32,836 bases of DNA from a virus. The DNA is taken from the IMG/VR virus record IMGVR_UViG_3300028745_000026, positions 1 through 32,836 of that record; one strand, written 5' to 3'. Each line of letters begins with the position of its first letter. The stretch's first letter is position 1. The notes beneath the pieces were generated by a model, which was not told the DNA's origin, searched no databases, and saw only the letters and a program-made list of their open reading frames with translations. Positions 18,015-32,836 of this stretch are shown piece by piece. Both the position numbers and the translations under genes were made by a program.

Positions 18015-18998
18015 ATGAGCCACCACAAGAGCTACTATCGCGTCGTCAATGGCAAGACTGTCTACGTGGGGGAGGGTGGCGAAGGGCAGGGGCGCCCGGC
18101 GGAGCTGCACGAACGAACCGCCATCGGCAAGCACAAGTCAGGAACCCACTACCTCCGGGCATCCGACGCCGAAGACGGAAAACAGATCGAGGCCGCCGCC
18201 AAGCACCTGGACATCAAGACAGAGAAGCGAAGATCCGGGGCCAGCCACTTCGGCCGGGTCGGCGCCTATGACCACCATCATGTGTCCAGCCTCCAGGACG
18301 CCACGGCGATCCATGCCCATCTGAAGGCAGGGAGCGAATCCGCCCCGGCCAAGACCGAGCTGGATAAGCCGGTAGACAAGGAAGTCCAGCCGGAGACCAA
18401 GGCTGAAGGCAAAGAGAAGGCGCCGGAGAAGGTCACCGACGAGTCGCCCAGCGGGAAAGCTATCGCTGCCGCCGAAGCCGTCAAGGGGCGTGACGCAAAA
18501 GAAATGCTTGGCTACTCACAGACGGCCCACCGCGCATCGCAGGAGGCAGACCGTACCGGGAGCCAGAAGGACCATTACATCGCCCATTCGCTTCACCTGG
18601 CTGCCGAAATGAGCCATAACCAGGCGACCGAGGATAGCGATGGGTACGAGGACATGGACGGGAAGGTCCATCCCCCCACGGAGGGCAACGAGGGGCACCA
18701 GAAGGCATGGCTGGCCCACCATGAGGCCAGCCGCTACCACAAGGGTAAAGCTGGTGATGCCAAGGTCCCAGCGTCCGAGATGAATGCAGCCCTGGCCAAA
18801 TATTCCAAGGCAGACCGGGGAGTTGCCAAGGCCCAAGGGGACCAGGAGGACGAGGCCAACAGCCGCCAGATGATGAAGTCCTACGTCGACGCCCGGCTGG
18901 GCCAGTTGGAAAAGCAGAAGTCCCGGGTCGGCGGCGACAAGATCGCCCTGGCCGCCCTGGAGCTTCGCCGGCAGTCCCTGTTGAACCTGGACAAGTAG
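18015..18998 (+). CDS. Accessory protein with shared N-terminal motif and Ala/His-rich helices
   Basis: A 327-residue protein; ATG 18015 has AGGAG 7 bases upstream, and a longer upstream reading would run back into the divergent gap and protease gene. Residues 5-18 (KSYYRVVNGKTVYV) match the starts of the proteins at 21643 and 24851. Residues about 31-95 (ERTAIGKHKSGTHYLRA, then a His-rich segment) are similar to residues about 167-225 of the next protein (ERTAMGVNKNKGWYLRA). Residues 105-155 are a charged, Lys/Glu/Pro linker. The rest is helical with Ala/His patterns such as HHEASRYHKGKAG. It is the first gene of the rightward accessory unit. No enzymatic motif is seen; function unknown. Confidence 0.75.
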   Translation: MSHHKSYYRVVNGKTVYVGEGGEGQGRPAELHERTAIGKHKSGTHYLRASDAEDGKQIEAAAKHLDIKTEKRRSGASHFGRVGAYDHHHVSSLQDATAIHAHLKAGSESAPAKTELDKPVDKEVQPETKAEGKEKAPEKVTDESPSGKAIAAAEAVKGRDAKEMLGYSQTAHRASQEADRTGSQKDHYIAHSLHLAAEMSHNQATEDSDGYEDMDGKVHPPTEGNEGHQKAWLAHHEASRYHKGKAGDAKVPASEMNAALAKYSKADRGVAKAQGDQEDEANSRQMMKSYVDARLGQLEKQKSRVGGDKIALAALELRRQSLLNLDK

Positions 18999-19008
18999 AG
19001 GAGGCCCC

Positions 19009-21639
19009 GTGGCCATCAAGAAGGACCATGCCAATGCTCTGGCCATGAAAGCCGGTGCCTACTATAAGGCGAAATGCCTTCCCAAGAACTTCTGCCGGAA
19101 GCCCGAGGACGTGGACGAAGGCCGGGACCTCCTGAAGGCGTTCGATGACGCCGTGGACGACGGGATGGACCCGGACGAGGGCTCCAGTCTGGTTTGCAAA
19201 TGCGCCGGTTCGATGGGGGGAGCCATGTCGGGCCCCCTGGCCGCGACCATGGCGACCAGGCCAGTGAAGCACATGGCGAACGGAACGATCCTGGAACAGA
19301 GGCCCATCGGCAAGTCCCACCATGACGCCACCTTCCGAGAGTCCAACGGCAAGCTGGTCCCGGTGGCAGCCTACGATGACGCGGTTCATGCCGCCCAGCC
19401 CCCAGCCAAGGCGGGGAAGAAGGTCGGCCACTACGCAGTCCACGAGGGCAAGACGAAGTGGACCGAGGGCCATGCTCCCGAAGGGGCCAAGGTGGCGTCC
19501 CTGGCGGAGCGCACCGCCATGGGCGTCAACAAGAACAAGGGTTGGTATCTCCGGGCGGCGAACAAGGCCGACGCCAACGCCATCAAGGAGGCCATCTACA
19601 AGGTGACCGGCGAGACCATGGAGCCCAAGCAGGGCGGAGCGGTCCACCACGGGAACGATTCGGCCTTTCCACATTTCTTCTTCGGGCATGGCGCGGCCGG
19701 CGGCGAGGTGGCGGCCAAGGTCATGGCGGTCCTCCATGGCGCAGAGGTGCCCAAGGAGGCCCCCGTGCCGGAGCCGGTGAAGGTGACCGGCATCTCCGAG
19801 GATGCCCTAGCAGCCAAGGAAGCCAGCGAGGAGGCCGACGCCTACAGCTATTCCCCGACGGATGATGTCCAGACCCACGATTCCGCCGTAAAGGCCCATC
19901 AGGATGCCGCCGTGGCTCAGGCCAAGGTGGCGATTGGTAGCGAAGGGGACGCACAGAAGGAACACTTCTCGAATGCCGCCTATCACAACCAGATGGCCAA
20001 ATACCATAAGGGAGCGGGGCTGGCCTCGGCTCAATCCGAGGAAGCCGACACGTTCCATGCCGTGAGTTCCAAGCACAATTCCACGGAGCATGGCGCGGCC
20101 GTAGCTGCCCATGATGCGGCTGCCAATTCTCACCAGGCCATCCTGGACGCCGACCTTCCGATCAGCCAGAAACTGAAGGACTACCACCAAGAGAAGGCCG
20201 CCCAGCACCTTGCCGCCAAGGCAAAGCATGTAGGATTCGCCATCGAACAGGCCGAAGGCGAGGTTGAGGATGCGGCCGGGGATGCCGCATACCTTGCGGC
20301 CCAACCCAAGTCGGCCTACGAGATGGGCCAGGAGGCTCACGCCAAGGGGCTCTCTGTGATCCCAAGCGAGAACAAAGATTTCATGGACTCCCAGCTCAAG
20401 CCTGGCGCCCCGGTCGGGAGCAACATCGACGCCATGAAGGGCTACCAAATGGGCTGGCATTCGGCCAATGCTGCCGCCCTGGTCCCGGACGAGGACGGCC
20501 CGAAGGTCGGCGATACCAAGACCGAGAACGGGAAGCAGTTCGTCCTCAACGAAAATCACCACTGGGAGCTGGCCATCGAGCAGCACCCGGAGGAGCAGGG
20601 CGGGGGATCCATGCCCACCGTCGCCGAGCTGGCCGGGGTCGGCAAGGAGTGGACCAAGGGAGCCAAGCATCGGATCTACTTCAACGCCAAGGACCACCTC
20701 CAGGCGGGCCTTTCCTATCCGGGCGGGAAGGTCTGGTATGAATTCGCCGACGGCAAGATGCACACCAAAGACCTGGGCGTCTCTGGGAACGCAGTCATCG
20801 AGAGCATCAAGAAGGCGGCCAAGGAGTGGGGAACCAAGAACGCCCAGGTCATGCCCGATACCGACGTGTTGGACTGGGAAGAAGCCCACCCCCAGGTGCA
20901 GGAGGCCAGGGGCGTCGTGAAGGGTGCCGGGGCCGGGTTCAAAGATAATCCAACCCCGGGCGGAGCCAGCGACTTGGCCCATGCTATCTCGGACCTCGCC
21001 GGAAAGATCACGGCGCATCACCCCGAGGCCACCGGACATGCCAGTGATGCTCACGCCTATTCCGAGGCTGCCCAGTATGCCTCCGGCAATGCCGCGAACA
21101 TGGGAGATGCCGAATCACACCTGAAGGCGGCCGGAGCCCATGGGAAGGCTGGGGTGTATCACGCCCAACTTGGCAATTCCTTCAACCTGACCGATACCCC
21201 CATCAAGCCTGGGCCGGCGCACCTCCAGAGCAGCCATACCGCAGCCGCCAAGGCTCATGCCGCCCTGGCCGAATATCACGGGAAGATGGCTGATTCTCTT
21301 GGCCAGACGCCGAAGGTCGCAGTCAAGCCCGATCCGTTCATGCCGAAGCCTCCCTCGGAGAAGTGGCACGAACACGACTGGGATGCCGCGACCAAACCCA
21401 TCATGGACGGATTGAGCGATACCCACCTCGCCATCACCAAGGACTCCGGCTACACCCCCAGCAAGAAAGAGCTGGAGAGCTACGTCCAACACGCCAAGCA
21501 CCTGGCGCTCGTCGCCGGGCACAAGGCAAAGCAGGGGCTCCCGAATAAATCCGAGGAAGGGCCGTCCTGGGGCGACTTCGGCCAGAAATGGGCCGGCTAC
21601 GCCAAAAAGGCCATGACCAAACTGAAAGAGATGGAGTAG
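19009..21639 (+). CDS. Large modular accessory protein, Ala/His-rich, shares modules with its neighbours
   Basis: An 876-residue protein starting at GTG 19009 with GAGGAGG upstream and 10 bases after the previous stop. The first 80 residues include a four-Cys segment (CLPKNFCRKPEDV, then LVCKCAGSM). Residues ~165-225 share a module with the protein before it. Residues ~280-430 and 655-780 are Ala/His helical repeats (AAYHNQMAKYHKG, DYHQEKAAQHLAAK, ALAEYHGKMAD). At ~504-523 it has GDTKTENGKQFVLNENHHWE, the same module as GDTKLENGQTYVLNANHRWE in the kinase-ART protein. A segment after ~545 (HRIYFNAKDHL, KVWYEFADGKMHTKDLG) looks like a separate small domain. It may act as a scaffold or a carrier. 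No catalytic residues are recognised. Confidence 0.75.
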   Translation: MAIKKDHANALAMKAGAYYKAKCLPKNFCRKPEDVDEGRDLLKAFDDAVDDGMDPDEGSSLVCKCAGSMGGAMSGPLAATMATRPVKHMANGTILEQRPIGKSHHDATFRESNGKLVPVAAYDDAVHAAQPPAKAGKKVGHYAVHEGKTKWTEGHAPEGAKVASLAERTAMGVNKNKGWYLRAANKADANAIKEAIYKVTGETMEPKQGGAVHHGNDSAFPHFFFGHGAAGGEVAAKVMAVLHGAEVPKEAPVPEPVKVTGISEDALAAKEASEEADAYSYSPTDDVQTHDSAVKAHQDAAVAQAKVAIGSEGDAQKEHFSNAAYHNQMAKYHKGAGLASAQSEEADTFHAVSSKHNSTEHGAAVAAHDAAANSHQAILDADLPISQKLKDYHQEKAAQHLAAKAKHVGFAIEQAEGEVEDAAGDAAYLAAQPKSAYEMGQEAHAKGLSVIPSENKDFMDSQLKPGAPVGSNIDAMKGYQMGWHSANAAALVPDEDGPKVGDTKTENGKQFVLNENHHWELAIEQHPEEQGGGSMPTVAELAGVGKEWTKGAKHRIYFNAKDHLQAGLSYPGGKVWYEFADGKMHTKDLGVSGNAVIESIKKAAKEWGTKNAQVMPDTDVLDWEEAHPQVQEARGVVKGAGAGFKDNPTPGGASDLAHAISDLAGKITAHHPEATGHASDAHAYSEAAQYASGNAANMGDAESHLKAAGAHGKAGVYHAQLGNSFNLTDTPIKPGPAHLQSSHTAAAKAHAALAEYHGKMADSLGQTPKVAVKPDPFMPKPPSEKWHEHDWDAATKPIMDGLSDTHLAITKDSGYTPSKKELESYVQHAKHLALVAGHKAKQGLPNKSEEGPSWGDFGQKWAGYAKKAMTKLKEME

Positions 21640-21642
21640 ACC

Positions 21643-24393
21643 ATGGCCCTCCATCACGGGAAAGACTTCTACCGCACCGTCCACGGCCAGCTCGTCCATG
21701 TCAAGGGGCGGGATTACGAGGTCAAGGGAACCACGGACGATGATTTTGCGAGGATGTATCCCGACGCCCAGGAGTCGCCGAAGGAACCCGGTGCCACCAC
21801 CATAGCACCCAAGGGCACCGAGCCCCCCCGAGAGGCAGCCGCCCCCCCGCATGGAGCCGTTTCGTTCGACGTGGACCGGGACTTTGAAAAGATGTTTGGG
21901 GGTGACGAGGCGCAGCCGGAGCCGGATCCCGTTCCAGCAACGACCGAGCCCCAGGCGGCCGAGCCCAGCCTTGTGGATCAGCTCCAGGCCATCGGCAAGG
22001 GGCATTCTGCCAACCTCGGCGGGTTCTACGTCCACCTCTCGACGCCCAGCGGAAAGTTCTTCATGGTCAGCAAGAAGAACGACGACGGCACCCCGATGAA
22101 GGCGGCCGTAGCCAAAGCCATTGCGGCAATGCACCCAGCCGGATACAAAAAGAAGCAGCAGAGTTACCTGGTGCCCAAGGATGAATACCTGGCCCTGGCG
22201 GCTCACTTGGAAGCCCAGGTGGCCGTCGGGAAGGCTCCAACCAAGCCCAAGGCGGACAAGACCCCGACTATCGGGTCGCACCCCGCATTCTCCCAGGTTA
22301 AAGAGGGAATGCAATTCGAGTACGGGGGCGACACCTACTCTGTCGTCAACAACCCGGCCGTCGACGGCGGGATCAAGCTCAAGGCGGACGGCAAGGATAT
22401 GACCTTCACGGCGGTCCCTGGTTTGTGGGGCAAGAAGTCGTGGAAGGATGCCTTCAAGTTCAAGGGGATGGGCGACCAGACGGGGCCCAAGATCGGCGAT
22501 ACCAAGCTGGAGAACGGGCAGACCTACGTCCTGAACGCTAACCATCGGTGGGAGCTGGTCGAGAAGAAGGGACCGGCCACGGTGGTTCCCAAGGTAGCCC
22601 CGCTTCCCAAGGCGTTCCCATTCAAGCAGATTGGCCCACAGAAGGGATCGAACCCGGGTGGCCTGTATGAGGACGCCTTCGGCAAGAAGTGGTATATCAA
22701 GTTCCCAGGGAGCGAGGATCAGGCCAAGAGTGAAATGCTGGCCGCCAAGTTCTACGACCTGATGGGCATCGGTGCCCCCAAGGTGAAGCTGGTCCAGAAG
22801 GACGGAAAGCTTGGGATCGCCTCTGCTTTCCAAGAGGGCCTGGCAAAGGTCGGCGACGGGGAAGCTCTGGGGGCAAAAGCCGGGGTCAAGGAAGGGTTCG
22901 GCGCCGACGCGTGGCTGGCGAATTGGGATGTGGTCGGCCTGGGTTATGACAACCTGCTGGTCGGTCCCGACGGAAAGGCTGTGCGGATCGACCCCGGCGG
23001 GGCTCTGGACTTCCGGGCACAGGGCGGCCAGAAGGGGCCAGCTTTCGGGAACACTGTCCCCGAGATCCACACACTGAAGGATGCGGTCAAGAATCCCCAG
23101 TCTGCCTCCGTCTTCGGCTCCATGACTCAGGAGGAGATGAACCAGAGCATGGTTCCGGTACTGGAAATGCCAGACGACGTTATCGCCAAGGCAGTCCAGC
23201 TTTTTGGCCCCGGAGACGACAACCAAAAGGCCGCCCTGTCGGCCAAGCTGATCGCCCGGAAAAACTACCTCGCCAAGCAGTTCCCGGAGGCCGAGGCTAT
23301 CGCTCATCCCCCCAAGCCTGACCCAAAGAGGCTCCCGGTGGATAAAGCTCAGATTCCCAAGCCGCCCGACTTCCTCGACTGGAACGGCCAAGGGAAGGGA
23401 CTTTCTGCAACCCAAAAGGTCAACGAAGCGAATCAGGAGGCCGCCGCCGAGGTCCACCGGGCGGCCATGAAGGGGGACCTGGTTCGGTTGAAGAACTTAC
23501 AGGTCCATCTAGTCGACAAGGGGACTGGGGAATCCAAGCTGATCCCCATCGAACAGCATCCCAGCACTCATGTCAAACAGTATTGGTCCGGTCTCGTTGC
23601 CTACATGGATGTGGTAGCAAACCCTGGTTCTGAGAAGCTGAAGACCTACTCCCTTGCTCAGGCAGAGGATGTTTCTGGCCTTTCAGATGCCTTCCCATCC
23701 AAACCGTTCGGTAAGAACACCGATAACATTGATAGCTCCGAGGTTCTCGGATACTTCATGCTGCTTGGCAGCGTGGCAAACCCAGAAGACTTCAGACCCA
23801 AGAACGCCGGAAGCAACGTTACTCCGGCTGAGGCGAAACTGGGTTATTCCCAATACGAGAAGATGCCGAAGAACCTGAAGTCCTACATCAGCAACGTCCA
23901 ATCCACCGGTTCGATTAATCACCACTTCAAAGGGAATGACGTTTCTTATGGCGGGACTGACATCAAATTGGCAATCAAAGAGAGCTACGAATACGCCATT
24001 CCGAAGCACGAAGGGGCCCGTCTCTGGCGCTGGATGGACATTCCCTCTACCATGGCCAAGCAGCTTCAACAGGCGGAGCCGGGATTGCTTTTCCAGAATA
24101 CCGATTCTATGTGTTGTTCCAAGGGCGAGGACTGGGGCAGCCATAAGCACTTCGGGAGCGACCTCCTCCTGGAGATTCACTATGCTGAAGGAGCCAAGGC
24201 CATGGATTCCTACGGATCCCATAGCATGTCCAGCGAACAGGAGATCACGACCCTCCCCGGGCAGCGGTTTATGATATTAAGCAAGGGTAAGGCTTCTGAC
24301 GGGAAAACGATGAAACTCGAATTGCTCATGCTCCCTCCTGACCCGACCTTCGTTGATTCCGTTGACCAGTTTAAGAAAGGGGTGACGGTATGA
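21643..24393 (+). CDS. Kinase-like plus ADP-ribosyltransferase effector
   Basis: A 916-residue protein; ATG 21643 follows the previous stop by three bases, with GGAG upstream. Residues 6-20 carry the shared motif (GKDFYRTVHGQLVHV). After linker and small modules, residues ~325-520 look like a HipA/PI3K-type kinase: YIKF with Lys353, Glu364, NWDVVGLGYDN with Asp429 and Asn437, and RIDPGG with Asp450. The C-terminal ~200 residues look like an R-S-E type ADP-ribosyltransferase: Arg796 in LWRWMDIP, a Ser pair in DSMCCSK (822, 826), and Glu-Gln-Glu at 865-867 followed by ITTLPGQRFMIL. It would transfer ADP-ribose from NAD to Arg of a host target. The ART region is lower in GC than its surroundings. 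The fold calls are from motifs; target unknown. Confidence 0.75.
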   Translation: MALHHGKDFYRTVHGQLVHVKGRDYEVKGTTDDDFARMYPDAQESPKEPGATTIAPKGTEPPREAAAPPHGAVSFDVDRDFEKMFGGDEAQPEPDPVPATTEPQAAEPSLVDQLQAIGKGHSANLGGFYVHLSTPSGKFFMVSKKNDDGTPMKAAVAKAIAAMHPAGYKKKQQSYLVPKDEYLALAAHLEAQVAVGKAPTKPKADKTPTIGSHPAFSQVKEGMQFEYGGDTYSVVNNPAVDGGIKLKADGKDMTFTAVPGLWGKKSWKDAFKFKGMGDQTGPKIGDTKLENGQTYVLNANHRWELVEKKGPATVVPKVAPLPKAFPFKQIGPQKGSNPGGLYEDAFGKKWYIKFPGSEDQAKSEMLAAKFYDLMGIGAPKVKLVQKDGKLGIASAFQEGLAKVGDGEALGAKAGVKEGFGADAWLANWDVVGLGYDNLLVGPDGKAVRIDPGGALDFRAQGGQKGPAFGNTVPEIHTLKDAVKNPQSASVFGSMTQEEMNQSMVPVLEMPDDVIAKAVQLFGPGDDNQKAALSAKLIARKNYLAKQFPEAEAIAHPPKPDPKRLPVDKAQIPKPPDFLDWNGQGKGLSATQKVNEANQEAAAEVHRAAMKGDLVRLKNLQVHLVDKGTGESKLIPIEQHPSTHVKQYWSGLVAYMDVVANPGSEKLKTYSLAQAEDVSGLSDAFPSKPFGKNTDNIDSSEVLGYFMLLGSVANPEDFRPKNAGSNVTPAEAKLGYSQYEKMPKNLKSYISNVQSTGSINHHFKGNDVSYGGTDIKLAIKESYEYAIPKHEGARLWRWMDIPSTMAKQLQQAEPGLLFQNTDSMCCSKGEDWGSHKHFGSDLLLEIHYAEGAKAMDSYGSHSMSSEQEITTLPGQRFMILSKGKASDGKTMKLELLMLPPDPTFVDSVDQFKKGVTV

Positions 24394-24851
24394 TCGGAAA
24401 CTCGCTGAACTTCGACCACCAGCCAAAAGGGAAGGTTGCCCTCAATGACCTGGGCGACGTGGGCGCCATCGTTCAGAAATTCGTGGCCGATGTCCTAAAG
24501 GATTACGACTCCTTCGGGAAAGGAGTGGCAACCAGGGACGATGCCATGGCTGCCATTCGCTTGAAGGCTACGGTCTTGGGTGACGCCTTCATGGGGAAGG
24601 ACCCAACGTTCTACGCCACCGAATGGAATACTCCCGACCGTCTGGGGGCTCACGTAAGGGCCCAGCGGTCGGTCAAATTCGAGGAACCCAGTCAGGATCC
24701 GGGCCAGGCATTCTTCCTGTTCTTGGCTACCCAGGTCGTGAAGTCGGCGAATGATCTCCATGGTGGAGACGAGGACCCGGAATGGGTTGGCTTCATGCTC
24801 CAGCGGGCCGTCAAGAGTGCCATCAAATTCCTTCTGACCGGGGAGGGGTAA
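24390..24851 (+). CDS. Small protein coupled to the kinase-ART gene, function unknown
   Basis: A 153-residue protein starting MIGNSLNFDHQPKGK at ATG 24390, overlapping the kinase-ART stop in an ATGA junction, so the two are probably translated together. It is mixed alpha/beta in look, with a helix near residues 22-40 and a C-terminal helix (VGFMLQRAVKSAIKFLL). No signal, membrane or catalytic motif is visible. Tight coupling to a toxin-like gene would suit a chaperone, an inhibitor or a co-factor, but nothing in the sequence shows which. Confidence 0.7.
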   Translation: MIGNSLNFDHQPKGKVALNDLGDVGAIVQKFVADVLKDYDSFGKGVATRDDAMAAIRLKATVLGDAFMGKDPTFYATEWNTPDRLGAHVRAQRSVKFEEPSQDPGQAFFLFLATQVVKSANDLHGGDEDPEWVGFMLQRAVKSAIKFLLTGEG

Positions 24852-25966
24852 TGAGGGAGATCAAGGGTTTCTTCCGCGAATTCAACGGCAAGCGGGTCTG
24901 GATCCCCGAGCATGAGGACTCCCGGGCCGCCGCCCAGGCCCCGCCATCCAAAGCCGCCCCCAAGAACCTGAAGCCGGTCAACATGGCGCCGGCCCCGCCG
25001 CCAAAGCACGTCAACCCGGACGACAAGATCGGCTACCAGCCGTGGAAGAACAACCACTTCGGCACCCAGGCATCGAAGCCGGTCACGTCGGCCCCGTTCA
25101 AGATCCCCGGCAAGACCGGCCAGGCCCCCTCGCACTCCGCCGGCCAGGCCCCGTCCGGGAAGTGGTCCTGGGCGAAGCCGGAAGGAGCCCCGGAGAAGCC
25201 GAAATACACCCCCGAGGAACAACTGGCCTATTTCCTCAAGCACAACCCTGGGGCCAAGAAGCACCCCAAGCTGGACGAGAAGGGGAATGACGCCTATATC
25301 AAGGATCCGTCCAAGGCCACCGGGGCGGACACCTGGGAGGACCCCAGTGCCGTCGCAACCTGGATCCCGGGCGGGAAGGCCCCCGCGTCCCTAAACGGGG
25401 TCGCCATGGCGCCCTGGGCCGACCACCCGACGACGGACGAGGACTGGATGGAGGTTGAGGGCCAGGACCCGACCATTCAGGAGCCCCCCCTCCCCGAGGG
25501 GAAGGCGCCGGCCGCCGGGCTGGTGATCGAGGAGCCCGACGGCCGGGTCTGGGTTATCCATCCCACCAACCAGTTCGGAGGCTACCGGGGCTCGTTCCCC
25601 AAGGGCCACGTCGACGGGGACGACGCCCTCCAGGCCACCGCGATCCGGGAGGCATTCGAGGAGTGCGGACTGAAGGCGGAGATCACCGGGTTCTTGGAGG
25701 ATGTCCAGAGGACCACCACGACGGCCAGGTACTACACGGCCAGGCGCGTCGGGGGAACCCCAACGGATTGCGGTTGGGAGAGCCAGGCGGTCTCCCTGGT
25801 GCCCCGGTCTCTCCTCTACCACTACCTCAACATGGCCACCGACCACGGGCTGGCTGAGGCTCTGGGAGCTGGGCCTCGGCCGGTTCCAAAATACGTCCCG
25901 CCGCCGAAGGCCCCCAAGGGCGCCCCCGAGGAACCCACTGGATTCTGGCAAGACATGGATTTTTGA
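24851..25966 (+). CDS. NUDIX hydrolase with long Pro-rich N-terminal region
   Basis: A 371-residue protein whose ATG 24851 shares its A with the previous TAA stop (TAATG). Residues 5-17 (KGFFREFNGKRVW) carry the shared N-terminal motif. Residues ~20-220 are Pro/Lys/Ala-rich and probably flexible. Residues ~225-355 form a NUDIX domain with a box from Gly252 to Leu274: Gly252, Asp258 in place of the usual Glu, then REAFEECGL (Arg266, Glu267, Glu270, Glu271, Gly273). The metal-binding REUxEE core is intact. NUDIX enzymes cut nucleoside diphosphates linked to other groups, such as ADP-ribose, NAD or dinucleotide polyphosphates. Next to an ART, an ADP-ribose- or NAD-related substrate is attractive but not shown. 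A terminator overlaps its stop. Confidence 0.85.
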   Translation: MREIKGFFREFNGKRVWIPEHEDSRAAAQAPPSKAAPKNLKPVNMAPAPPPKHVNPDDKIGYQPWKNNHFGTQASKPVTSAPFKIPGKTGQAPSHSAGQAPSGKWSWAKPEGAPEKPKYTPEEQLAYFLKHNPGAKKHPKLDEKGNDAYIKDPSKATGADTWEDPSAVATWIPGGKAPASLNGVAMAPWADHPTTDEDWMEVEGQDPTIQEPPLPEGKAPAAGLVIEEPDGRVWVIHPTNQFGGYRGSFPKGHVDGDDALQATAIREAFEECGLKAEITGFLEDVQRTTTTARYYTARRVGGTPTDCGWESQAVSLVPRSLLYHYLNMATDHGLAEALGAGPRPVPKYVPPPKAPKGAPEEPTGFWQDMDF

Positions 25967-25992
25967 GAACGCCCCCGAAAGGGGGTTTTCTC
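25965..25992 (+). terminator. Rho-independent terminator after the NUDIX gene
   Basis: CCCCC-GAAA-GGGGG followed by TTTT forms a compact hairpin, extended by GAGAA/TTCTC outside. It overlaps the last two bases of the NUDIX stop codon and ends the 18015-25966 unit before a new promoter. Confidence 0.8.
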
Positions 25993-26011
25993 GTGCTGTC
26001 CAATTCCATTC

Positions 26012-26040
26012 TTGACTTACGGTCGCTTTGGGCCGATATT
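26012..26040 (+). promoter_or_regulatory. Candidate sigma70-type promoter
   Basis: TTGACT (26012-26017), a 17-base spacer and GATATT (26035-26040). It lies right after a terminator and 41 bases before the GTG start of the next gene, with a GAGGAGG site between. The -35 is strong and the -10 moderate. It would start the second rightward transcript. Confidence 0.55.
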
Positions 26041-26081
26041 AAGACATACCGCCGCTGCAACGGCTTTCGAGGAGGTTTAGA

Positions 26082-26459
26082 GTGTGGGTTTTTCTCAATG
26101 ATGCGTTTCTGTCTATCGTCCAGCCGCCAGCCGGGGATCCCAAGGATCGGCTCCTGGTCCGAGGCCGGGTTAAGGGTGACCTAGAGCGAGTCTTTCCGAA
26201 GGCTAAGGTCTCGGAAACTGCCAATCACGACTATCGTTTTCGCACCCTGATTTCCCGACAGGAGGTGGCAATCGCTCTGACCCGGGAAGTCATGGCCCTG
26301 AACTACCCCAACTTCAAGGGGAGTGTGATCGAGAACGACCGGCACGATGCGTACATGGGGTGCTGGAGCAGCATGAATGGCCTCCAGCGTTCACGCCTCG
26401 CTCCGCCGAAGCCGGCGAAGGGGCGGATTCGGCCATGGATCGACGATGATTTAACCTAG
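26082..26459 (+). CDS. Conserved small protein of phages and mobile elements, function unknown
   Basis: A 125-residue protein starting at GTG 26082, with GAGGAGG upstream. The N-terminus (MWVFLNDAFLSIVQ) and the sequence LLVRGRVKGDLERVFPKA, then YRFRTLISRQEVAIALTREV and YPNFKGSV, resemble a small protein that I recall from many phages and conjugative elements. I know no assigned function for it. The C-terminus is Pro/Lys/Arg-rich. It has its own promoter and is the first gene after the terminator, which suggests separate timing from the effector genes. Confidence 0.8.
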   Translation: MWVFLNDAFLSIVQPPAGDPKDRLLVRGRVKGDLERVFPKAKVSETANHDYRFRTLISRQEVAIALTREVMALNYPNFKGSVIENDRHDAYMGCWSSMNGLQRSRLAPPKPAKGRIRPWIDDDLT

Positions 26460-26473
26460 CATTAGGGGCACGG

Positions 26474-26488
26474 TAGGGCTTGGCCCTA
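26474..26488. repeat. Short inverted repeat between genes
   Basis: TAGGGC-TTG-GCCCTA, a perfect 6-bp hairpin in the 90-base gap before the gene at 26550. There is no T-run, so it is not a typical terminator. It could be an mRNA processing, stability or operator site. Confidence 0.35.
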
Positions 26489-26549
26489 GCGGTTCGCATC
26501 GGGGGTTCCTGGCAGGGTTGGGCTTTACGCCACCCGCGAGGAGCCCCCG

Positions 26550-27071
26550 ATGCCCGTTATCAATACCACCCCCGCTACCAAAGTTTCCCCCAGTCTGGCG
26601 ATGCCTCTGGCGGTCCCTCTGAATGGGGACATTTCCGGGCTGGTCTTCATCCTGGACGCCCTCCTGCATGGTGGCCCCAAGTCGGCGACCACTACCACTC
26701 CTCCCACCGGGCCGACTCAGGGCGACCTCTACATCGTTCCCGCTGGCGCCACCGGGGCTTGGTCGGGTCAGGCTGGCAACTTGGCTATCTGCAATCCTCA
26801 GATCGTCAAGGATGGTAAGCCCAATCCCTACTCCTTTGAATGGGACTTCATGGCGCCCAAGACGGGAATGAATCTTTACGTCCAGGACGTCGGCGGGTTC
26901 GTGACCTACACCGGGACGGCATGGGTAGCGGATCCTCTTTCCTTCGTCTCTGCCGCTCCCGCCAACAGCTCGGCCGCTGGTATCAAGGGTCAGATTTGGG
27001 CCGATGCGGGACAGCTCTGCATTTGCATTGCCACGAACACCTGGCGGAAGGTCGTCACCACCACCTTCTAA
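26550..27071 (+). CDS. DUF2793-like structural protein
   Basis: A 173-residue protein; ATG 26550 has GAGGAG 6 bases upstream. The pattern GDLYIVPAGATGAWSGQAGN, then FMAPKTGMNLYV and YTGTAWV, matches DUF2793-type segments of phage tail fibre and virion proteins. The C-terminus (AGIKGQIWADAGQLCICIAT, NTWRKVV) is a common phage-surface ending. It is probably a virion surface or fibre-tip component. It lies among accessory genes rather than near the fibre gene at 5307, which is unusual. Confidence 0.75.
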   Translation: MPVINTTPATKVSPSLAMPLAVPLNGDISGLVFILDALLHGGPKSATTTTPPTGPTQGDLYIVPAGATGAWSGQAGNLAICNPQIVKDGKPNPYSFEWDFMAPKTGMNLYVQDVGGFVTYTGTAWVADPLSFVSAAPANSSAAGIKGQIWADAGQLCICIATNTWRKVVTTTF

Positions 27072-27088
27072 GCCATTCTGGAGCCGTC

Positions 27089-27634
27089 ATGGACAACCAT
27101 TCCCTCGAAGTCCGTTTCTTTTCCGCCATCCAGGCCCTGGCCATGGCGTCACAGTCGCCCCGCGCCATCACCAAGTCCATCCAGGAGCTGCCCGAGAGCG
27201 TCGGGGCTGCCGATGCGATTCATCAGGCCGTGATGGACGGGCTGCCCATGGATCGACTCCGCACCATCGTCAAGTCGAGTCAGGGCGACAGCCGCCGGGG
27301 CCGCGCCATCTCCGGGCGGATCCTGGACTGGATGGAGGAAGGTCGGCCGGCGCCGGAGGGAGAGCGCCCCATCGCCAAGGCCGCCAGCGATGTCCCCGGT
27401 GTGGGCACCCTTCCCGATGGGTTCCTGAAGTGGCAGCTCGGCACCGACGCATATTCCACGGCCACCCGCCAGGGCCTCATGGAGGAGCCGCGCTACGACA
27501 CCGAGTCGTCCCAGGCCACCGACATCCCCCACAAGGGGAACGCCTTCAAACTGCCCGGGAAAGAGATCGCCATGCCCGGGACGGACGAGCCCAAGAAGAA
27601 GAAAGTGAACCCCAAGACCGACCTGGTGGACTGA
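27089..27634 (+). CDS. Hypothetical protein, helical, Lys-rich tail
   Basis: A 181-residue protein; ATG 27089 follows the previous stop by 17 bases. A longer upstream reading is a shadow of the DUF2793-like gene. The N-terminal ~85 residues are helical (LEVRFFSAIQALAMA, DRLRTIVKSSQGD, RAISGRILDWME). The middle is short and polar, and the C-terminus is basic (EPKKKKVNPKTDL). The stop overlaps the next start (TGATG). No family is recognised. Confidence 0.65.
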   Translation: MDNHSLEVRFFSAIQALAMASQSPRAITKSIQELPESVGAADAIHQAVMDGLPMDRLRTIVKSSQGDSRRGRAISGRILDWMEEGRPAPEGERPIAKAASDVPGVGTLPDGFLKWQLGTDAYSTATRQGLMEEPRYDTESSQATDIPHKGNAFKLPGKEIAMPGTDEPKKKKVNPKTDLVD

Positions 27635-28281
27635 TGGAACCCCCGAGTGGGTATTTGCTCTGGCACCTGTTGACGGATGCCTTCAACGCCGTGACTTCCG
27701 GCCGCCCCATCGAAAAGGCCCAGCGGGCAGTCACGGTTCGGGCGCATTTCAGCCATGACGGGAAGGGCGGATTGCATCCCGTTAAGGCCAGTGTCCGGTG
27801 GGTTGATCAGGCCGCCTTCGCGCAGCTTGAGGATCAGCGGGTCAAGGCGACCTATGCCGCCATCCTCCAGCTCCAAAAAGGGAAGGGGCACCCGCCCTAC
27901 ATGACCACGAAGCATATGCGACTTGGCCCAATCGGGCTGGAATACGAGCGGCTGGAACATATTATCGACCAGCGGGCCAAACGGGGGCAGGACTTGGCGG
28001 CTTGCATGAGGGGGATGGCGGAATGCCTTGTTCGTGGAGACTTGAAGGTCGAGCCCCCAGGGAAAGACAACCGGCGCCCCAGCACGACGCCCCAAATATG
28101 GGCCACCAGCGGGAAGCACCAGGTAACCCTATCGCCCTTCTATGACAACCCGGCCCTTCCCACTGACACCGTTCCGACCTGGGTCGTATCCGGGTACGAA
28201 ATGGAAGCGGCAAGGCCAACGGAGACGGCTGAAGCCAAGAGCGTCGTGATCGAAATCCAGAACGATTCCGAGGCAAAGTGA
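27634..28281 (+). CDS. Hypothetical protein, coupled to neighbours on both sides
   Basis: A 215-residue protein whose ATG 27634 shares its A with the upstream TGA (TGATG), and whose own TGA overlaps the next ATG at 28281. It starts MEPPSGYLLWHLLTDAFNAV and has a mixed fold with a helical centre (YERLEHIIDQRAKRGQDLAA). No signal peptide, membrane helix or catalytic motif is seen. Function unknown. Confidence 0.7.
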   Translation: MEPPSGYLLWHLLTDAFNAVTSGRPIEKAQRAVTVRAHFSHDGKGGLHPVKASVRWVDQAAFAQLEDQRVKATYAAILQLQKGKGHPPYMTTKHMRLGPIGLEYERLEHIIDQRAKRGQDLAACMRGMAECLVRGDLKVEPPGKDNRRPSTTPQIWATSGKHQVTLSPFYDNPALPTDTVPTWVVSGYEMEAARPTETAEAKSVVIEIQNDSEAK

Positions 28282-28403
28282 TGGCCCGCCAAAGGGGTAG
28301 CCTCGGACGGGCCTACTTGGGGATTGGTCCGGCTATATTCCGCCCCCCTGTTGCACTCCAGAAATATGCCCCCGTCCAAGCAGGATTGCAAGTCGAATTT
28401 TGA
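28281..28403 (+). CDS. Candidate 40-residue protein between coupled genes
   Basis: ATG 28281 shares its A with the preceding TGA stop (TGATG), and its TGA (28401-28403) is 7 bases before the start of the giant gene. The 40-residue product (MARQRGSLGRAYLGIGPAIF, then a short Pro/Val/Gln-rich end) is basic at the N-terminus and mildly hydrophobic in the middle. The overlap at one end and close spacing at the other support a translated small gene, possibly coupling the two neighbours. It may also be chance. Confidence 0.5.
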   Translation: MARQRGSLGRAYLGIGPAIFRPPVALQKYAPVQAGLQVEF

Positions 28404-28410
28404 GGCACCC

Positions 28411-31400
28411 ATGAACGCCGGAATCCCCTTTACCGATAACGAATCCGGGGAAACCGGGTGGCTGATTCCCGTCGGCTGGACCCCCACTATCGCCCTGAAG
28501 ATCAAGCCCTTGACCACCCCAGATCTGGATCGACAGGCAGGGAAGGCCGAGCCACGGGAGGGCGGCCGGCGCGGGCACATCGTCGTCCAGGGGATCCCCA
28601 TCGCCATTGAGAATCCCGTCGGGAGTATCCGAAGCGGGGTTGACTCCTGCGGGACGAAGTGGTCGGTCAAGATGGCCAACCATTATGGATTTTGCAAGCG
28701 GTCCTTCGGGGCAGACGGGGACGGGGTGGATTGCTTTGTCGGGCCCAACCCGGAGAGCCAGTCGGTCTTCATCGTCAATCAGGTGGATCCGCTCTCTGGC
28801 GAATTCGATGAACACAAGGTCATGATCGGATGGGACACCGAGGCGGAGGCCAAGGCTGCCTACTTCGCCAACTACAGCAAGGGCTGGGACGGCTTCCACT
28901 CCATCGCCGCCCACACCATCGACGACTTCAAGGACTGGCTGGCAGATGAGAACGCCACCCGGACCATCGCCAAGAGCGAAGCAGAGGGCTTACAGCTTTG
29001 GGACCCCGACATGCCTAATTCTGGGCACGGCTGGATTTTCCCGAGGCCGGATGGTTGCAAGGCCCGGTGCGGTGGCCCGAAGCCACCGGACTACCAAGGC
29101 GACGGGCTCAACTGCTGTCATTGCGCCGAGGACCAGCGACGGCGTGACGGCTGGCGCACCATCGTCAAGGGCGGAGACCCCATCCCCGCCGGGGCCCACT
29201 GGATTACCGCGCACCCCGACGGGCCCGGTTCCAAGGGCCACCCTCTCCTCATCCAGCCGATCCAGGGTAGCAACGGCGCTGCCCGCGTCATCGGTGGCGC
29301 CCAGGGAAAACTGAATGGGCTCCGACTGCATGGCCTGAAGAACCCGGCACAATACAAGGAGGAGTCCAGGGCCAACGCCAAGGGCCGCCGCGAGGCCGAG
29401 GCGAAGCGGAAGGCCAGCCTGTCACCCGATGACCTCGCCAAGGAGCGGGAGGTCTCTGACGGGGCTCGGGCGGAGCGCAAGCAGGCCGAGGACAAGTTCA
29501 TCAACGACGTCCTGGGAACCGCCACAGGTGGCCAGGGCGGCGACCATGAGGATCTGTTCAAGGGCGAGGACGACCCCAAGGTTGCCAAGGAGGCGCACCG
29601 GGCCCGGCTGGCCGAGGCCAAGAAGATCGTCGCCGAGGCAGAGAAGAAGGTTCTCTTGGACGCCGAGGCCCGGGGAGCCAGCGGGATCAACTTGGTCGGC
29701 GGGGATTCCCCTATGGACCTGGACGCCATCCTCTCGGAAACCCAGGGCAAGTCCGGGCCCGGCTACAACCAGAAGCTGGCCGAGCGGGCAGAGAAGGCCG
29801 GCATGACCAGCGAAAAGCTGATGGCTGCCGTGAACGAGATTCAAGCTGCCGAAGGCAAGGCGCCCAAGGAGGCTACGGGCCCCAAGAGCCCGGAGGAACA
29901 GGCCGCGAACATCCAGATTCACAAGGCGACTAAAGACCTCCAGGCACAGAAGGCCGCCGCCATGCGTGACGCCGTGAAGGAATCCCTGGAGTCCAATGAG
30001 ACCCTGGCCCACCTCCTGCGGGCCCGCCAGGCACTCCGGGCGACCTACAAACAGCAGATGGCAGCCAAGAAGGGGATCACCTTCGAGCCGGGGTTCCAGA
30101 TGGCCGTCGGCACCCCCGAGGAACACGAAGCCCTGGTCCAGTCCCTGCACGAGCAGCTCCTGACCCAGCACGTCCAGGGATTCCTGGAGGAGGTGGGCGA
30201 GAGATTCCCCGAGGGGAGCGACATCGACCCGTTCAAGACCGGCGAAATGGAGGGAATGCACCAGAGCCGGGGAGCCGGCGCCTTTGACCTTCTGCACGAT
30301 GTCGGCCTGGCGGCCCTGGGCCAGGGAATGATCGACCGGGACGTTGTTGAGTGCCTGGGGCCCGAGGGGGCTGCCCACGTCGTCGCCCGTGCCCTTCGGC
30401 AGAACTTCAGCCCCGAGGACCAGCAAGCCGTCCTGGAGGCTCTGGAGCACCACCACCTCCAAGAGCAGGAGACCTTGCTTCCCCAGGTGACCGAGGACGC
30501 CCAGGCTCTCCGGGCCAAGGCTGCCCAATGTGACCAGGAACTCCTGGAAGTAGCTCACGACATCCCGGCCGCTGTAGAGATCCAGAAGAATAAGGTGGAG
30601 GCCCTGAAAGAGGCGCGTCGGGTCCTGGGCGGGGCCCTGGGGCGACTGGAAGCGAGAGCTGCCCTGATCGCCGCCCTCCACTCCACCCCTCTGAACGAGT
30701 ACCAGATCCCTCTGGGCAAGATGACCCCTGAGAAGGCAGTCATGACGGCAGCCGCCCTTGGGATGCCCGAGGGAAGCTACCAGATCAGCCACGAGGACGG
30801 GGAGGCCGTCATCACCGCCCAGGGCGCAGCTATGGACGCCATGGTCAAGCCGGTGGATTGCGCGGCCCTGGGCGAGAGGGAGGTGGCCTTGTCTCTCAAG
30901 GGTGGCCAGCAGGATGAGGACAACTGGATCCCGGCTGGGTTCGCCAATCGGCTGGCCGACCGGTATTCCAACCCCGAAATGGAGCCCGCCGAATTCCAGC
31001 GGCACCACGATATCCAGGACGGAGACGACGCTGAGGCGGTGAAGGGGAAGCTCCAGGCATGGATGGGCTCACGGCTGGCCGACGGGGAACGACCCGAGGA
31101 CATCGTTGCCAGCGTCTATGGCGGGGCCAAGCTGGACCTCTCCCCGGAAGCTCAGGCTCATTGGGACGCAGCCATGAACGAGATGGTCCCCCTGCGGGTC
31201 GTGGAAAAGGACGCCAAGAGCCAGCCCATTCAGGAAAAGGACAAGGAGACCGGGAAGCCCATAGAGATCAACGGGAAGCCCATGCTCAAGACCCGCGTCC
31301 GGGCCCCCCACGAGATCGCAGCCGACTTGGATCCCATGATGCAGGGCTACATGGCCGCGAACCCCAATGAGGCAGGAACGACCCTCCAGGGCCAGCGGGT

Positions 31401-32836
31401 GCAGGACGATGGAAACTTCCATGAGGCACTTCACCGGGCACTGGCCAAGGATCCCCGGCTGGCCGCCGCCTATATCCCCCAGGGCGAACTGACCCACGAA
31501 CACGCGTCGGCCATCCGGGACTTCTTCTACAAGGAACACTTCGGCGGCAAGGCGAACAGCGACGACGCCAAGAAGTGGAAATTCGACCAGGCCATCGGCA
31601 ACCTGGGCCCCGAGCCCGAGAAGACCAACGCCGAAGTCCAGTCCATGAATCTATTCGCCGGCATGAGCGACGACGACGCGGCCGACGCTGAGGGAGCCGC
31701 GTCGGACAAATGGGTGGAGTGGAACAACAAGCGGCAGCAGCTCGAATCCGAATATCACGAGGACGCCACCAAGCCGACCCTTTGGGACAGCTACATCCAG
31801 CGGATGGGTGGGACCAAGTTCGCCCAGGGCGCCATCCAGGACGTGATGCGGGGGCAGCTCAATGAAGCCTTCCACGACCACTACCACCACCTGACCGGCC
31901 AGAAGCTCCAGATGGCGACGGCCGACATTTCCGGGGCCCAGGCGCACCTCCAGATGACCTTGGGAGACAAGGAGGCCGAGGCCCTGGCCGCAGATCGCAA
32001 GTCCCAACAGGCGAAGCTCCAGAAGAAGGGCGGCGGCCAGTTCGGGGCGGGGAAGGTCGGAGACAAGCTCAAGGAGGCGAAGGCAGCCCAGGCCCTAGCA
32101 AAGGTCCAGGACGGGGCCCTATTCAACTTGAACGAAACCGAGGAGCCGGAGCCCGGGAGAGAGGAGGCGCCGGCTGCCGCATGGGAGAAGCCCGAGCTGG
32201 CGCCCGGGGAACGCTACCACCTTGGGACTGCCCTGGAGAACCAAATCCGGGGGCTCATGCCGGCCGCGTCGGCGCCCTTTGCTGGGCGAAAGGGGTCAGT
32301 GAACGTCCAGGACGGGCTCCACATGAGCGGGAAATACGTCCAGCAGCAGAGGGCCGTCAAGGCGATCACCCAGCTCAAACGGATGGGGCTTTTCTATGGC
32401 GCCGGCAGCGGCAAGACCCCGATCATGCTGGGCAGCCTCACGACCCTTCACCAGCAGGGGAAGCTCAAGAAGGGCATCATCGCCGTCCCGTCGGTCGTCC
32501 AGGCCCAGTTCGGCGCCGAAGCCATCCGGTTCATCGACCCATCCAGCGGCTTTCATGTCCATGCCGCCCCGGGCGAGAGCTACGACGAGAGGCTGGCCGC
32601 CTACCGCGACCCCGACCAGCAGGCGGTCGTCGTGACCCACCAGACCCTTCGGGACGATACCCTAAAGATCCTGGGCGACCACCTGGGCAGCGGGCCCGAG
32701 GGTGCCAGGGAATTTCTGCATTCGGCATCCCCCAAGGACGCCGCTGCATCCGTCAAGGAAGCGTTCATCAAGGCTGGGATCGACTTCAACGCCATGATGG
32801 TGGACGAGGCCCACGGCGCCCTGGACCGGGATGGAA
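28411..32836 (+). CDS. Polyvalent protein, pyrophosphatase-like domain to SNF2-type helicase, cut by window edge
   Basis: At least 1475 codons are open from ATG 28411 (GAGG just upstream; an in-frame ATG at 28366 lacks a site). Residues ~54-175 resemble the inorganic-pyrophosphatase domain of phage polyvalent proteins: GADGDGVDCFVGP gives Asp102, Asp104 and Asp107 of the DxDxxD signature, then DEHKVMIGWD. Residues 216-238 are a Cys/His cluster (C216, C220, C235, C236, H237, C238). Residues ~264-303 (HWITAHPDG, GGAQGKLNGLRL) form another small module. A long Ala/Glu/Gln-rich helical part follows (~320-1300). Then comes an SF2/SNF2 motor: GAGSGKT at 1330-1336 (Walker A) and DEAH at 1465-1468 (Walker B). 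Such proteins are thought to enter the host with phage DNA. The end is not in the window. Confidence 0.85.
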   Translation, partial: MNAGIPFTDNESGETGWLIPVGWTPTIALKIKPLTTPDLDRQAGKAEPREGGRRGHIVVQGIPIAIENPVGSIRSGVDSCGTKWSVKMANHYGFCKRSFGADGDGVDCFVGPNPESQSVFIVNQVDPLSGEFDEHKVMIGWDTEAEAKAAYFANYSKGWDGFHSIAAHTIDDFKDWLADENATRTIAKSEAEGLQLWDPDMPNSGHGWIFPRPDGCKARCGGPKPPDYQGDGLNCCHCAEDQRRRDGWRTIVKGGDPIPAGAHWITAHPDGPGSKGHPLLIQPIQGSNGAARVIGGAQGKLNGLRLHGLKNPAQYKEESRANAKGRREAEAKRKASLSPDDLAKEREVSDGARAERKQAEDKFINDVLGTATGGQGGDHEDLFKGEDDPKVAKEAHRARLAEAKKIVAEAEKKVLLDAEARGASGINLVGGDSPMDLDAILSETQGKSGPGYNQKLAERAEKAGMTSEKLMAAVNEIQAAEGKAPKEATGPKSPEEQAANIQIHKATKDLQAQKAAAMRDAVKESLESNETLAHLLRARQALRATYKQQMAAKKGITFEPGFQMAVGTPEEHEALVQSLHEQLLTQHVQGFLEEVGERFPEGSDIDPFKTGEMEGMHQSRGAGAFDLLHDVGLAALGQGMIDRDVVECLGPEGAAHVVARALRQNFSPEDQQAVLEALEHHHLQEQETLLPQVTEDAQALRAKAAQCDQELLEVAHDIPAAVEIQKNKVEALKEARRVLGGALGRLEARAALIAALHSTPLNEYQIPLGKMTPEKAVMTAAALGMPEGSYQISHEDGEAVITAQGAAMDAMVKPVDCAALGEREVALSLKGGQQDEDNWIPAGFANRLADRYSNPEMEPAEFQRHHDIQDGDDAEAVKGKLQAWMGSRLADGERPEDIVASVYGGAKLDLSPEAQAHWDAAMNEMVPLRVVEKDAKSQPIQEKDKETGKPIEINGKPMLKTRVRAPHEIAADLDPMMQGYMAANPNEAGTTLQGQRVQDDGNFHEALHRALAKDPRLAAAYIPQGELTHEHASAIRDFFYKEHFGGKANSDDAKKWKFDQAIGNLGPEPEKTNAEVQSMNLFAGMSDDDAADAEGAASDKWVEWNNKRQQLESEYHEDATKPTLWDSYIQRMGGTKFAQGAIQDVMRGQLNEAFHDHYHHLTGQKLQMATADISGAQAHLQMTLGDKEAEALAADRKSQQAKLQKKGGGQFGAGKVGDKLKEAKAAQALAKVQDGALFNLNETEEPEPGREEAPAAAWEKPELAPGERYHLGTALENQIRGLMPAASAPFAGRKGSVNVQDGLHMSGKYVQQQRAVKAITQLKRMGLFYGAGSGKTPIMLGSLTTLHQQGKLKKGIIAVPSVVQAQFGAEAIRFIDPSSGFHVHAAPGESYDERLAAYRDPDQQAVVVTHQTLRDDTLKILGDHLGSGPEGAREFLHSASPKDAAASVKEAFIKAGIDFNAMMVDEAHGALDRDG

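What the first reader, a model, noticed from the sequence alone, without database searches (positions are those of the whole stretch)
18015..32836. Accessory cargo region: kinase-ART, NUDIX and pyrophosphatase-helicase polyvalent protein beside the head genes
Seen: a rightward gene run starting next to the prohead protease encodes two Ala/His-rich modular proteins, a kinase-like plus ART protein, a small coupled partner, a NUDIX protein and a giant pyrophosphatase/Cys/SF2 protein. Known: polyvalent proteins (Iyer et al. 2017) and T4 Alt enter the host with the DNA. Inference: these form a packaged host-takeover or counter-defence set that works on NAD/ADP-ribose and nucleotide chemistry. The combination and the shared modules between its members may be undescribed as a system.
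Basis: partly seen in the sequence, partly recalled or inferred. Interest (0 to 1): 0.85.

Follow-up and report, generated by a model that had tools for sequence, protein, structure and literature searches.

The report
Phage kinase chassis with swappable toxin
Next to its capsid genes this phage carries a conserved four-gene set in which a kinase, a nucleotide-cleaving enzyme and a small protein stay constant while a toxin-like enzyme and its small partner are exchanged between phages as one unit, which suggests an interchangeable weapon delivered with the viral DNA.

Summary
46 of 47 kinase+ART viral loci with room carry partner and NUDIX next door. Among 50,697 phage records the 125-aa protein was found in 7, the same 7 that hold the rest. 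The Ala/His-rich and giant InPase-helicase proteins are neighbours only (InPase in 2 of 79 kinase loci).

New: ART and partner move together between phages, while kinase and NUDIX follow the terminase. One contrasting pair shares 76% of kinase and 74% of NUDIX but 23% of ART and 21% of partner. Polymorphic toxin-immunity pairs behave so; it argues against NUDIX being the ART's eraser. Packaging has only indirect support: particle flags in Yersinia phage fHe-Yen8-01, and MuF-kinase-ART relatives. No activity was tested.

The parts
21643..24393 (+). Kinase-ART protein, 916 aa; modular N-terminal part, HipA/CtkA-type kinase, middle domain, C3/VIP2-type ART
   Evidence: AF2 model pLDDT 88.1 of aa 327-916; fold matches; homologues in 7 named phages; 345 viral stretches encode a relative, many of the kinase part only
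22621..23298 (+). Kinase domain (aa 327-552), constant part of the system
   Evidence: CtkA 3akk Z 16.1, CotH 5jd9 Z 13.9, HipA 4pu4 Z 12.6; K, D and N of the expected active site invariant in 53 diverse copies, a second D in 90% or more
23347..23622 (+). Middle domain (about aa 569-660); moves with the ART
   Evidence: HMM hit in the identical locus L015; distances to ART r 0.77, to kinase 0.46
23782..24339 (+). ART domain (aa 714-899): LWRW, MCCS in place of STS, EQE
   Evidence: C3bot2 Z 12.6; profile match to SpvB 2gwm E 5e-4 and Vis 4xzj E 8e-4; ExE glutamates kept in 39 of 39
24390..24851 (+). Small partner, 153 aa, helical; start overlaps the kinase-ART stop (ATGA)
   Evidence: Sequence at 24385-24400; AF2 pLDDT 91; no clear PDB match; co-inherited with the ART
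24851..25966 (+). NUDIX protein, 371 aa; start overlaps the partner's stop (TAATG)
   Evidence: PF00293 E 7e-13; three Nudix-box glutamates invariant in 15 aligned; in 8 of 50,697 phage records at E 1e-5, 7 of them cassette phages
26082..26459 (+). Fourth cassette gene, 125 aa (starts VWVFLNDAFLSIV), not in the finding; no Pfam or NCBIfam match
   Evidence: best PHROG only E 0.026; in 7 of 50,697 phage records, the cassette phages; 41 of 42 kinase+ART loci with 2.6 kb of room
28324..32836 (+). Giant InPase - Cys cluster - SF2 helicase protein, cut by the window end (1853 aa in L095); neighbour, not part of the cassette
   Evidence: InPase in only 2 of 79 kinase loci
19009..21639 (+). Ala/His-rich protein 2; lineage-specific neighbour
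   Evidence: No match in 50,697 phage records; relatives only in L016 (also seen as L096) and, weakly, L017 among the loci searched
18015..18998 (+). Ala/His-rich protein 1; lineage-specific neighbour
   Evidence: Relatives only in L016 and L017 among the loci searched
17028..17888 (-). Head maturation protease (weak match)
   Evidence: PHROG E 3e-5
14645..16093 (-). Major capsid protein
   Evidence: PHROG E 6e-55; top-ranked named phages Dolphis, Jeremy, PHB04, Mecenats66

Best explanation
A head-linked phage effector cassette. Its constant chassis is a HipA-type kinase, a NUDIX hydrolase and a 125-aa protein. Plugged into it is an exchangeable unit: the ART domain with the small protein encoded just behind it. 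Shown: the folds (predicted), the conserved gene order, and joint replacement of middle domain, ART and partner between a constant kinase and a constant NUDIX. Inferred: the proteins enter the cell with the DNA; the ART modifies a host macromolecule, probably at arginine; the small protein binds and restrains its own ART in the producing cell or in the particle, as Bsi does for Bxa; the kinase phosphorylates a host protein or the cargo; NUDIX works with the kinase rather than as the ART's eraser. Host takeover or harm to a competitor is likelier than countering an NAD-based defence, but nothing here decides it.
For: Folds. Linkage: 46 of 47 viral loci with at least 1.5 kb downstream, 39 of 40 after removing near-copies; all four genes in order in 7 of 7 named phages; control of 78 InPase loci, 1.29 Mb: partner 0, NUDIX 0, 125-aa gene 0, kinase 2, ART 1. 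Exchange in 50 loci: ART-partner r 0.66 (partial 0.38, reached in 0 of 2000 permutations), kinase-NUDIX r 0.74. ART class needs 1 change on the ART tree, 2 on the partner tree, 9 on kinase (strong branches alone force 2), 10 on NUDIX (strong branches force 6), 7 on terminase (31 loci) and 9 on the 125-aa gene (48 loci). AU test of ART class I as one clade: partner p 0.48, kinase p 0.0003, NUDIX p 0.00003. Within classes, partner-ART r is 0.85 and 0.83. NUDIX carries a second kinase in 8 viral cassette loci, and four Pseudomonas genomes hold kinase-NUDIX in the other order. Head link: MuF in 19 of 22 kinase proteins scanned outside the standard cassette; terminase in 34 of 81 loci; particle flags in fHe-Yen8-01.
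Against: The partner lies between ART and NUDIX, so any exchange with break points in kinase and NUDIX would carry it along whether or not it serves the ART. The partner also keeps some correlation with the kinase (partial 0.23). Within classes ART and NUDIX correlate at 0.45. The partner homologue in fHe-Yen8-01 is flagged in the particle, unusual for a pure immunity protein. That particle list is broad (52 of 136) and no paper for it was found. Eight of 39 ARTs, all of class II, have Lys at the aligned Arg position, so some may be inactive or misaligned there. In Oxalobacter (L179) the partner is fused to NUDIX, not to the ART. By plain tblastn the window's partner finds 1 phage record and the Dolphis partner 4, so partner homology across classes rests on profiles. 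Substrates are unknown.
Confidence: 0.6

Rival explanations
1. The small protein is a packaging adaptor or co-effector of the ART, not its inhibitor: it brings the ART into the capsid or is injected with it.
For: Partner homologue flagged particle-associated beside the ART protein in fHe-Yen8-01; an adaptor would also be exchanged with its cargo; the compact helical fold suits either role.
Against: The ART protein already carries the constant kinase and a long N-terminal part, so an adaptor specific for each ART seems unneeded (inference). No direct evidence either way.
Confidence: 0.27
2. One reading: a packaged NAD/ADP-ribose kit in which NUDIX processes ADP-ribose or ADP-ribosylated products of the ART, perhaps against NAD-based host defence.
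For: ART and NUDIX are neighbours in 46 of 47 loci with room; weak NUDIX matches to NudE and RNA pyrophosphohydrolase models; packaged Nudix and ART proteins were proposed in PMC9503650 (passages).
Against: Over all loci NUDIX does not track the ART (partial r -0.03) but tracks the kinase (0.68) and the terminase (0.69); most fusions join NUDIX to the kinase. A generic eraser need not co-evolve, so this is not excluded.
Confidence: 0.2
3. The cassette is not delivered: it is expressed late and acts in the producing cell, for example on superinfecting phages or on host metabolism.
For: The particle evidence is indirect and from one broad list; the window itself has no packaging data.
Against: MuF-kinase-ART fusions, place beside terminase and portal, flags on all three proteins but not on the 125-aa homologue, gene 132.
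Confidence: 0.15

Closest known systems
Bxa of Bacteroides stercoris prophage with Bsi and BAH (PMC11699363; abstract and passages seen)
   Same: Head-region ART toxin with a small binding inhibitor and an enzyme encoded beside it
   Different: Bxa has MuF, and no kinase is mentioned in the passages seen; BAH is an ADP-ribosyl hydrolase that reverses the toxin's modification, whereas the NUDIX here follows the kinase, not the ART
MuF polymorphic toxins of temperate phages (PMC5576092; passages seen)
   Same: Variable C-terminal toxins including ARTs, small ORF downstream, head link; MuF-kinase-ART relatives found here
   Different: The window protein has no MuF match; 'kinase', 'HipA' and 'Nudix' give 0 hits in that text
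Polyvalent proteins (PMC5512222; passages seen)
   Same: Large multidomain phage proteins; InPase and SF2 domains of the giant neighbour; kinases and ARTs among their domains
   Different: Their kinase is described as lacking the C-terminal subdomain and found primarily in (pro)phages of Verrucomicrobia-Chlamydia and Bacteroidetes lineages; the kinase here matches CtkA and HipA over about 226 model residues
T4 Alt (recalled; mentioned in passages of PMC9503650)
   Same: ART of the R-S-E group linked to the virion
   Different: No kinase, no partner, no exchange unit known to me (recalled)
HipA and CtkA kinases (fold match)
   Same: Fold and likely active-site residues
   Different: Fused to ART or NUDIX; window protein has no Pfam HipA_C match; a HipB-type antitoxin was not looked for

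Membership tests
R-S-E ADP-ribosyltransferases | ART fold | tested here: met
   C3bot2 Z 12.6, rmsd 3.0 over 170 residues; Foldseek E 3e-7 to C3bot1
R-S-E ADP-ribosyltransferases | Arg, STS and ExE motifs | tested here: inconclusive
   ExE in 39 of 39; window has LWRW and EQE but MCCS; Lys at the aligned Arg position in 8 of 39
R-S-E ADP-ribosyltransferases | Transfer of ADP-ribose | not testable with these tools
   Needs an assay
HipA-like kinases | Kinase fold of the HipA/CtkA kind | tested here: met
   CtkA Z 16.1, rmsd 3.4 over 211; HipA Z 12.6, rmsd 3.5 over 190 residues
HipA-like kinases | Pfam HipA_C above its cut-off | tested here: not met
   No match in the window; 5 of 39 and 7 of 22 relatives at E 0.01 or better, the three scores shown (16-26 bits) below the 30.5 cut-off
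NUDIX hydrolases | NUDIX domain with catalytic glutamates | tested here: met
   PF00293 49 bits against cut-off 21; E133, E136, E137 invariant in 15
MuF polymorphic toxins | N-terminal MuF domain | tested here: not met
   No PF04233 in the window protein; present in 19 of 22 kinase proteins outside the standard cassette
Polymorphic toxin-immunity pairs | Small gene directly behind the toxin domain and exchanged with it | tested here: met
Polymorphic toxin-immunity pairs | Toxicity, and neutralisation by the small protein | not testable with these tools
   Needs expression and binding assays
Polyvalent proteins (giant neighbour) | InPase domain joined to other domains in one large phage protein | tested here: met
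   PF18823 160 bits, helicase matches; 1853 aa
Virion-delivered effectors | Presence in particles and injection | tested here: inconclusive
   Record flags only, in one relative

The most novel reading that the evidence does not exclude
A head-delivered weapon platform not described in what I searched: a HipA-type kinase, joined functionally to a NUDIX enzyme and a 125-aa protein, is the constant launcher, and ART plus cognate inhibitor is an exchangeable cartridge. The kinase may arm the cartridge on meeting ATP in the new cell. The same kinase serves MuF-linked effectors in other phages.
Probability: 0.25. Interest if true: 0.85.

Novelty: new variant of a known kind. Interest (0 to 1): 0.63.

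Why it matters
If right, toxin-immunity-like exchange also operates in head-linked cassettes of roughly 90-kb phages without MuF, with a kinase-NUDIX chassis of unknown chemistry. It gives named, isolated phages (for example Pseudomonas phage Dolphis, host P. putida) in which delivery, toxicity and neutralisation can be tested directly, and it names an unannotated 125-aa family that marks the system.

Tried and rejected
Six-protein set: rejected, because the giant protein and the Ala/His-rich proteins do not travel with the cassette (loci reach at most 9 kb each side, so distant copies would be missed).

Packaging tag: most cassette NUDIX proteins begin near a KAHVKGYTRKDGTYVKPH-like motif, and some kinase-ART proteins carry it. 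An exact DNA pattern for V.GYTRKDGT.V gave 26 stretches; by eye only about five look like phage cargo, and most others sit in unrelated, often signal-peptide-like proteins. So it is not specific.

NUDIX as the ART's eraser: weakened, not excluded. Partner fold: no clear match (Foldseek best E 0.39, VIA best Z 6.9). Kinase profile against PDB sequences: only chance-level rows; the fold search found it. The eighth NUDIX record (MT835507, L267) has no kinase or ART hit within the 9.3 kb read.

Literature: ten searches listed no paper that describes the cassette by title or abstract start; the library is open-access PMC only, figures and supplements were not seen, and several listed papers (for example PMC7824862, PMC13282480, PMC5694885) were not opened.

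Limits: the domain HMMs were built from the window and six of the seven named phages, so those match by construction; the IMG/VR and genome loci do not. The 125-aa HMM was trained on kinase loci; its linkage rests on single-sequence searches. The 50-locus set left out 11 listed near-copies, including the window's own copy L015 (its 77% relative L016 is in), and loci lacking a domain. ART classes were named from the ExE motif after seeing the alignment, so the AU p-values are not for a group named beforehand. The pairs quoted are among its most contrasting. The terminase references are lineage-specific; InPase control loci gave 0 terminase, 1 portal, 1 capsid of 78. Two queries for the reading frames at 27058-28281 were mis-framed, so those frames remain untested.
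Full report
What is there. The window is a whole 32,836-base virus record, part of a phage with contractile-tail genes whose capsid protein ranks nearest to Dolphis, Jeremy, PHB04 and Mecenats66 at about 30% identity. The rightward genes exist as described. A longer contig, identical where compared, completes the giant protein to 1853 aa.

Kinase and ART. The window protein has no Pfam match. An AlphaFold2 model from 39 window and IMG/VR sequences has pLDDT 88.1. Residues 1-226 of the model match CtkA (Z 16.1), CotH (13.9) and HipA (12.6); residues 388-573 match C3/VIP2 ARTs (C3bot2 Z 12.6). By profile the ART meets SpvB (E 5e-4) and Vis (E 8e-4). Both glutamates of ExE are kept in 39 of 39; the STS motif is MCCS in the window, and 8 of 39 have Lys at the aligned Arg position. 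Across 53 diverse kinase copies the expected Lys, Asp and Asn are invariant and a second Asp is kept in at least 90%; that these are the active site is recalled knowledge plus fold.

Partner, NUDIX and a fourth gene. The partner starts in the kinase-ART stop (ATGA) and NUDIX starts in the partner's stop (TAATG). The partner is predicted as a helical bundle (pLDDT 91) with no clear PDB match. NUDIX has its three catalytic glutamates in 15 of 15 sequences aligned. The gene at 26082-26459 has no Pfam or NCBIfam match.

Linkage. A profile of the window and six phages found 345 relatives in viral contigs, 80 kept. Fifty carried an ART hit; 47 had at least 1.5 kb downstream, and 46 of these have partner and NUDIX next door (39 of 40 after removing near-copies). 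The three without room are L028, L031 and L059; the one exception, L083, is a MuF-kinase-ART protein. In genomes, 7 of 8 kinase+ART loci have both and the eighth (L182) carries NUDIX in the same chain; some of these look like the same elements as in the viral set. The 125-aa gene is present in 41 of 42 kinase+ART loci with 2.6 kb of room (36 on the same strand within 2.6 kb) and in 15 of 19 without ART (8 so placed). In 50,697 phage records at E 1e-5 it was found in 7 and NUDIX in 8; kinase-ART was found in the same 7, and the kinase part alone in 12 more, 11 of them Gordonia phages. Profiles place all four genes in order in those 7. The partner is too divergent for plain tblastn: the window copy finds 1 record, the Dolphis copy 4. 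Control: in 78 InPase loci (1.29 Mb), partner 0, NUDIX 0, 125-aa gene 0, kinase 2, ART 1.

What does not belong. InPase occurs in 2 of 79 kinase loci. Ala/His-rich protein 2 has no match in the phage records, and both such proteins have relatives only in L016 and L017 among the loci searched.

Exchange. For 50 loci I compared pairwise distances of five parts. Kinase-NUDIX r 0.74, ART-partner 0.66, ART-middle 0.77, ART-NUDIX 0.15. Partial values: ART-partner 0.38 (0 of 2000 permutations as high), kinase-partner 0.23, kinase-NUDIX 0.68, ART-NUDIX -0.03. The ARTs fall in two classes by their ExE context, 20 and 28 loci, 2 unassigned. Class changes: ART tree 1, middle 1 (weak branch), partner 2, kinase 9, NUDIX 10; strongly supported branches alone force 2 on kinase and 6 on NUDIX. 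Terminase 7 in 31 loci, 125-aa gene 9 in 48. Holding class I as one clade is not rejected by the partner (p 0.48) but is by kinase (p 0.0003) and NUDIX (p 0.00003). Terminase distances follow kinase (0.63) and NUDIX (0.69), not ART (0.12). Among the most contrasting pairs, L027 against Dolphis: kinase 76%, NUDIX 74%, middle 33%, ART 23%, partner 21%; L021 against L053: kinase 74, NUDIX 73, terminase 71, ART 19, partner 21. Middle-ART-partner is therefore replaced as one piece inside a constant chassis. The partner's position alone could explain its joining the exchange; within-class correlations of partner with ART (0.85, 0.83) exceed those with kinase (0.74, 0.61) and NUDIX (0.60, 0.43), which favours a dedicated pair. 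Within classes ART-NUDIX is 0.45 in both, so the independence is between classes more than within them.

Fusions. NUDIX carries a second kinase copy in 8 viral cassette loci (L023, L025, L026, L038, L042, L071, L076, L082; some near-copies) and in the genome locus L188; kinase-NUDIX in four Pseudomonas genomes; NUDIX, kinase and ART in one chain in L059/L182; partner-NUDIX in L179. Fusions are read from open frames without a stop between the domains.

Delivery. I scanned 22 kinase proteins outside the standard cassette: 20 of the 30 loci without an ART-profile hit, plus L059 and L083. Of them 19 have MuF, 7 a Pfam ART, 3 NUDIX, 1 a Zeta toxin. Terminase lies in 34 of 81 loci searched, with lineage-specific references. 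In fHe-Yen8-01, genes 129-131 are flagged particle associated and gene 132 (the 125-aa homologue) is not; 52 of 136 are flagged, chance 0.054 for three of three. No paper on that phage was found.

Comparison. The closest worked example is Bxa with a binding inhibitor and an ADP-ribosyl hydrolase (PMC11699363, abstract and passages). MuF toxins (PMC5576092, passages), polyvalent proteins (PMC5512222, passages) and the NAD-ADPr survey (PMC9503650, passages) cover the general ideas. In the passages and term counts seen, none describes this kinase-ART-partner-NUDIX cassette. The Mecenats66 paper has 0 hits for NUDIX or ADP-ribosyl.

Noticed in passing
L196 8149-10305, L199, L208, L222 (P. cerasi, Pseudomonas sp. 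KUIN-1, P. tremae, P. syringae): Open frames of about 560-770 aa joining the same kinase to the same NUDIX type, kinase first; on chromosome records in L196 and L199; context not examined
   Followed up: no
L188, L068, L094: Further proteins joining NUDIX and this kinase in one chain (L188 Zoogloeaceae genome; L068 and L094 viral proteins over 2000 aa)
   Followed up: partly
L006 5785-6579 and 9154-15483 (Bordetella phage PHB04): A (p)ppGpp-synthetase-annotated protein and a 2110-aa methylase-annotated protein between portal and capsid genes carry the GYTRKDGT-like N-terminal motif
   Followed up: partly
L011 7665-9869 and 10144-13197 (Gordonia phage Mareelih): Kinase and ART in separate genes just behind the portal gene
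   Followed up: no
L221, L223, L226, L228, L232, L234-L239 (genome contigs of uncultured bacteria): Open frames of about 1600-3500 aa with the kinase ending about 540-600 aa before the C-terminus
   Followed up: no
L267 (MT835507): A cassette-type NUDIX downstream of genes that by eye resemble ZorA/ZorB of Zorya defence (recalled, not tested)
   Followed up: no
L095 18644-19807: PAPS-reductase family protein downstream of the giant gene (PHROG 424, E 6e-31)
   Followed up: no
window 26550-27071 and 26840-28281: A DUF2793 tail-fibre-type gene, with a relative only in L016/L096 among the loci searched, and further short reading frames before the giant gene that were not properly tested
   Followed up: partly
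N-terminal parts of the kinase-ART proteins in L003, L004, L005, L008, L009: Repeated modules of the type GD..AIL..YG.NTYGKK; read by eye, possibly related to the middle domain
   Followed up: no
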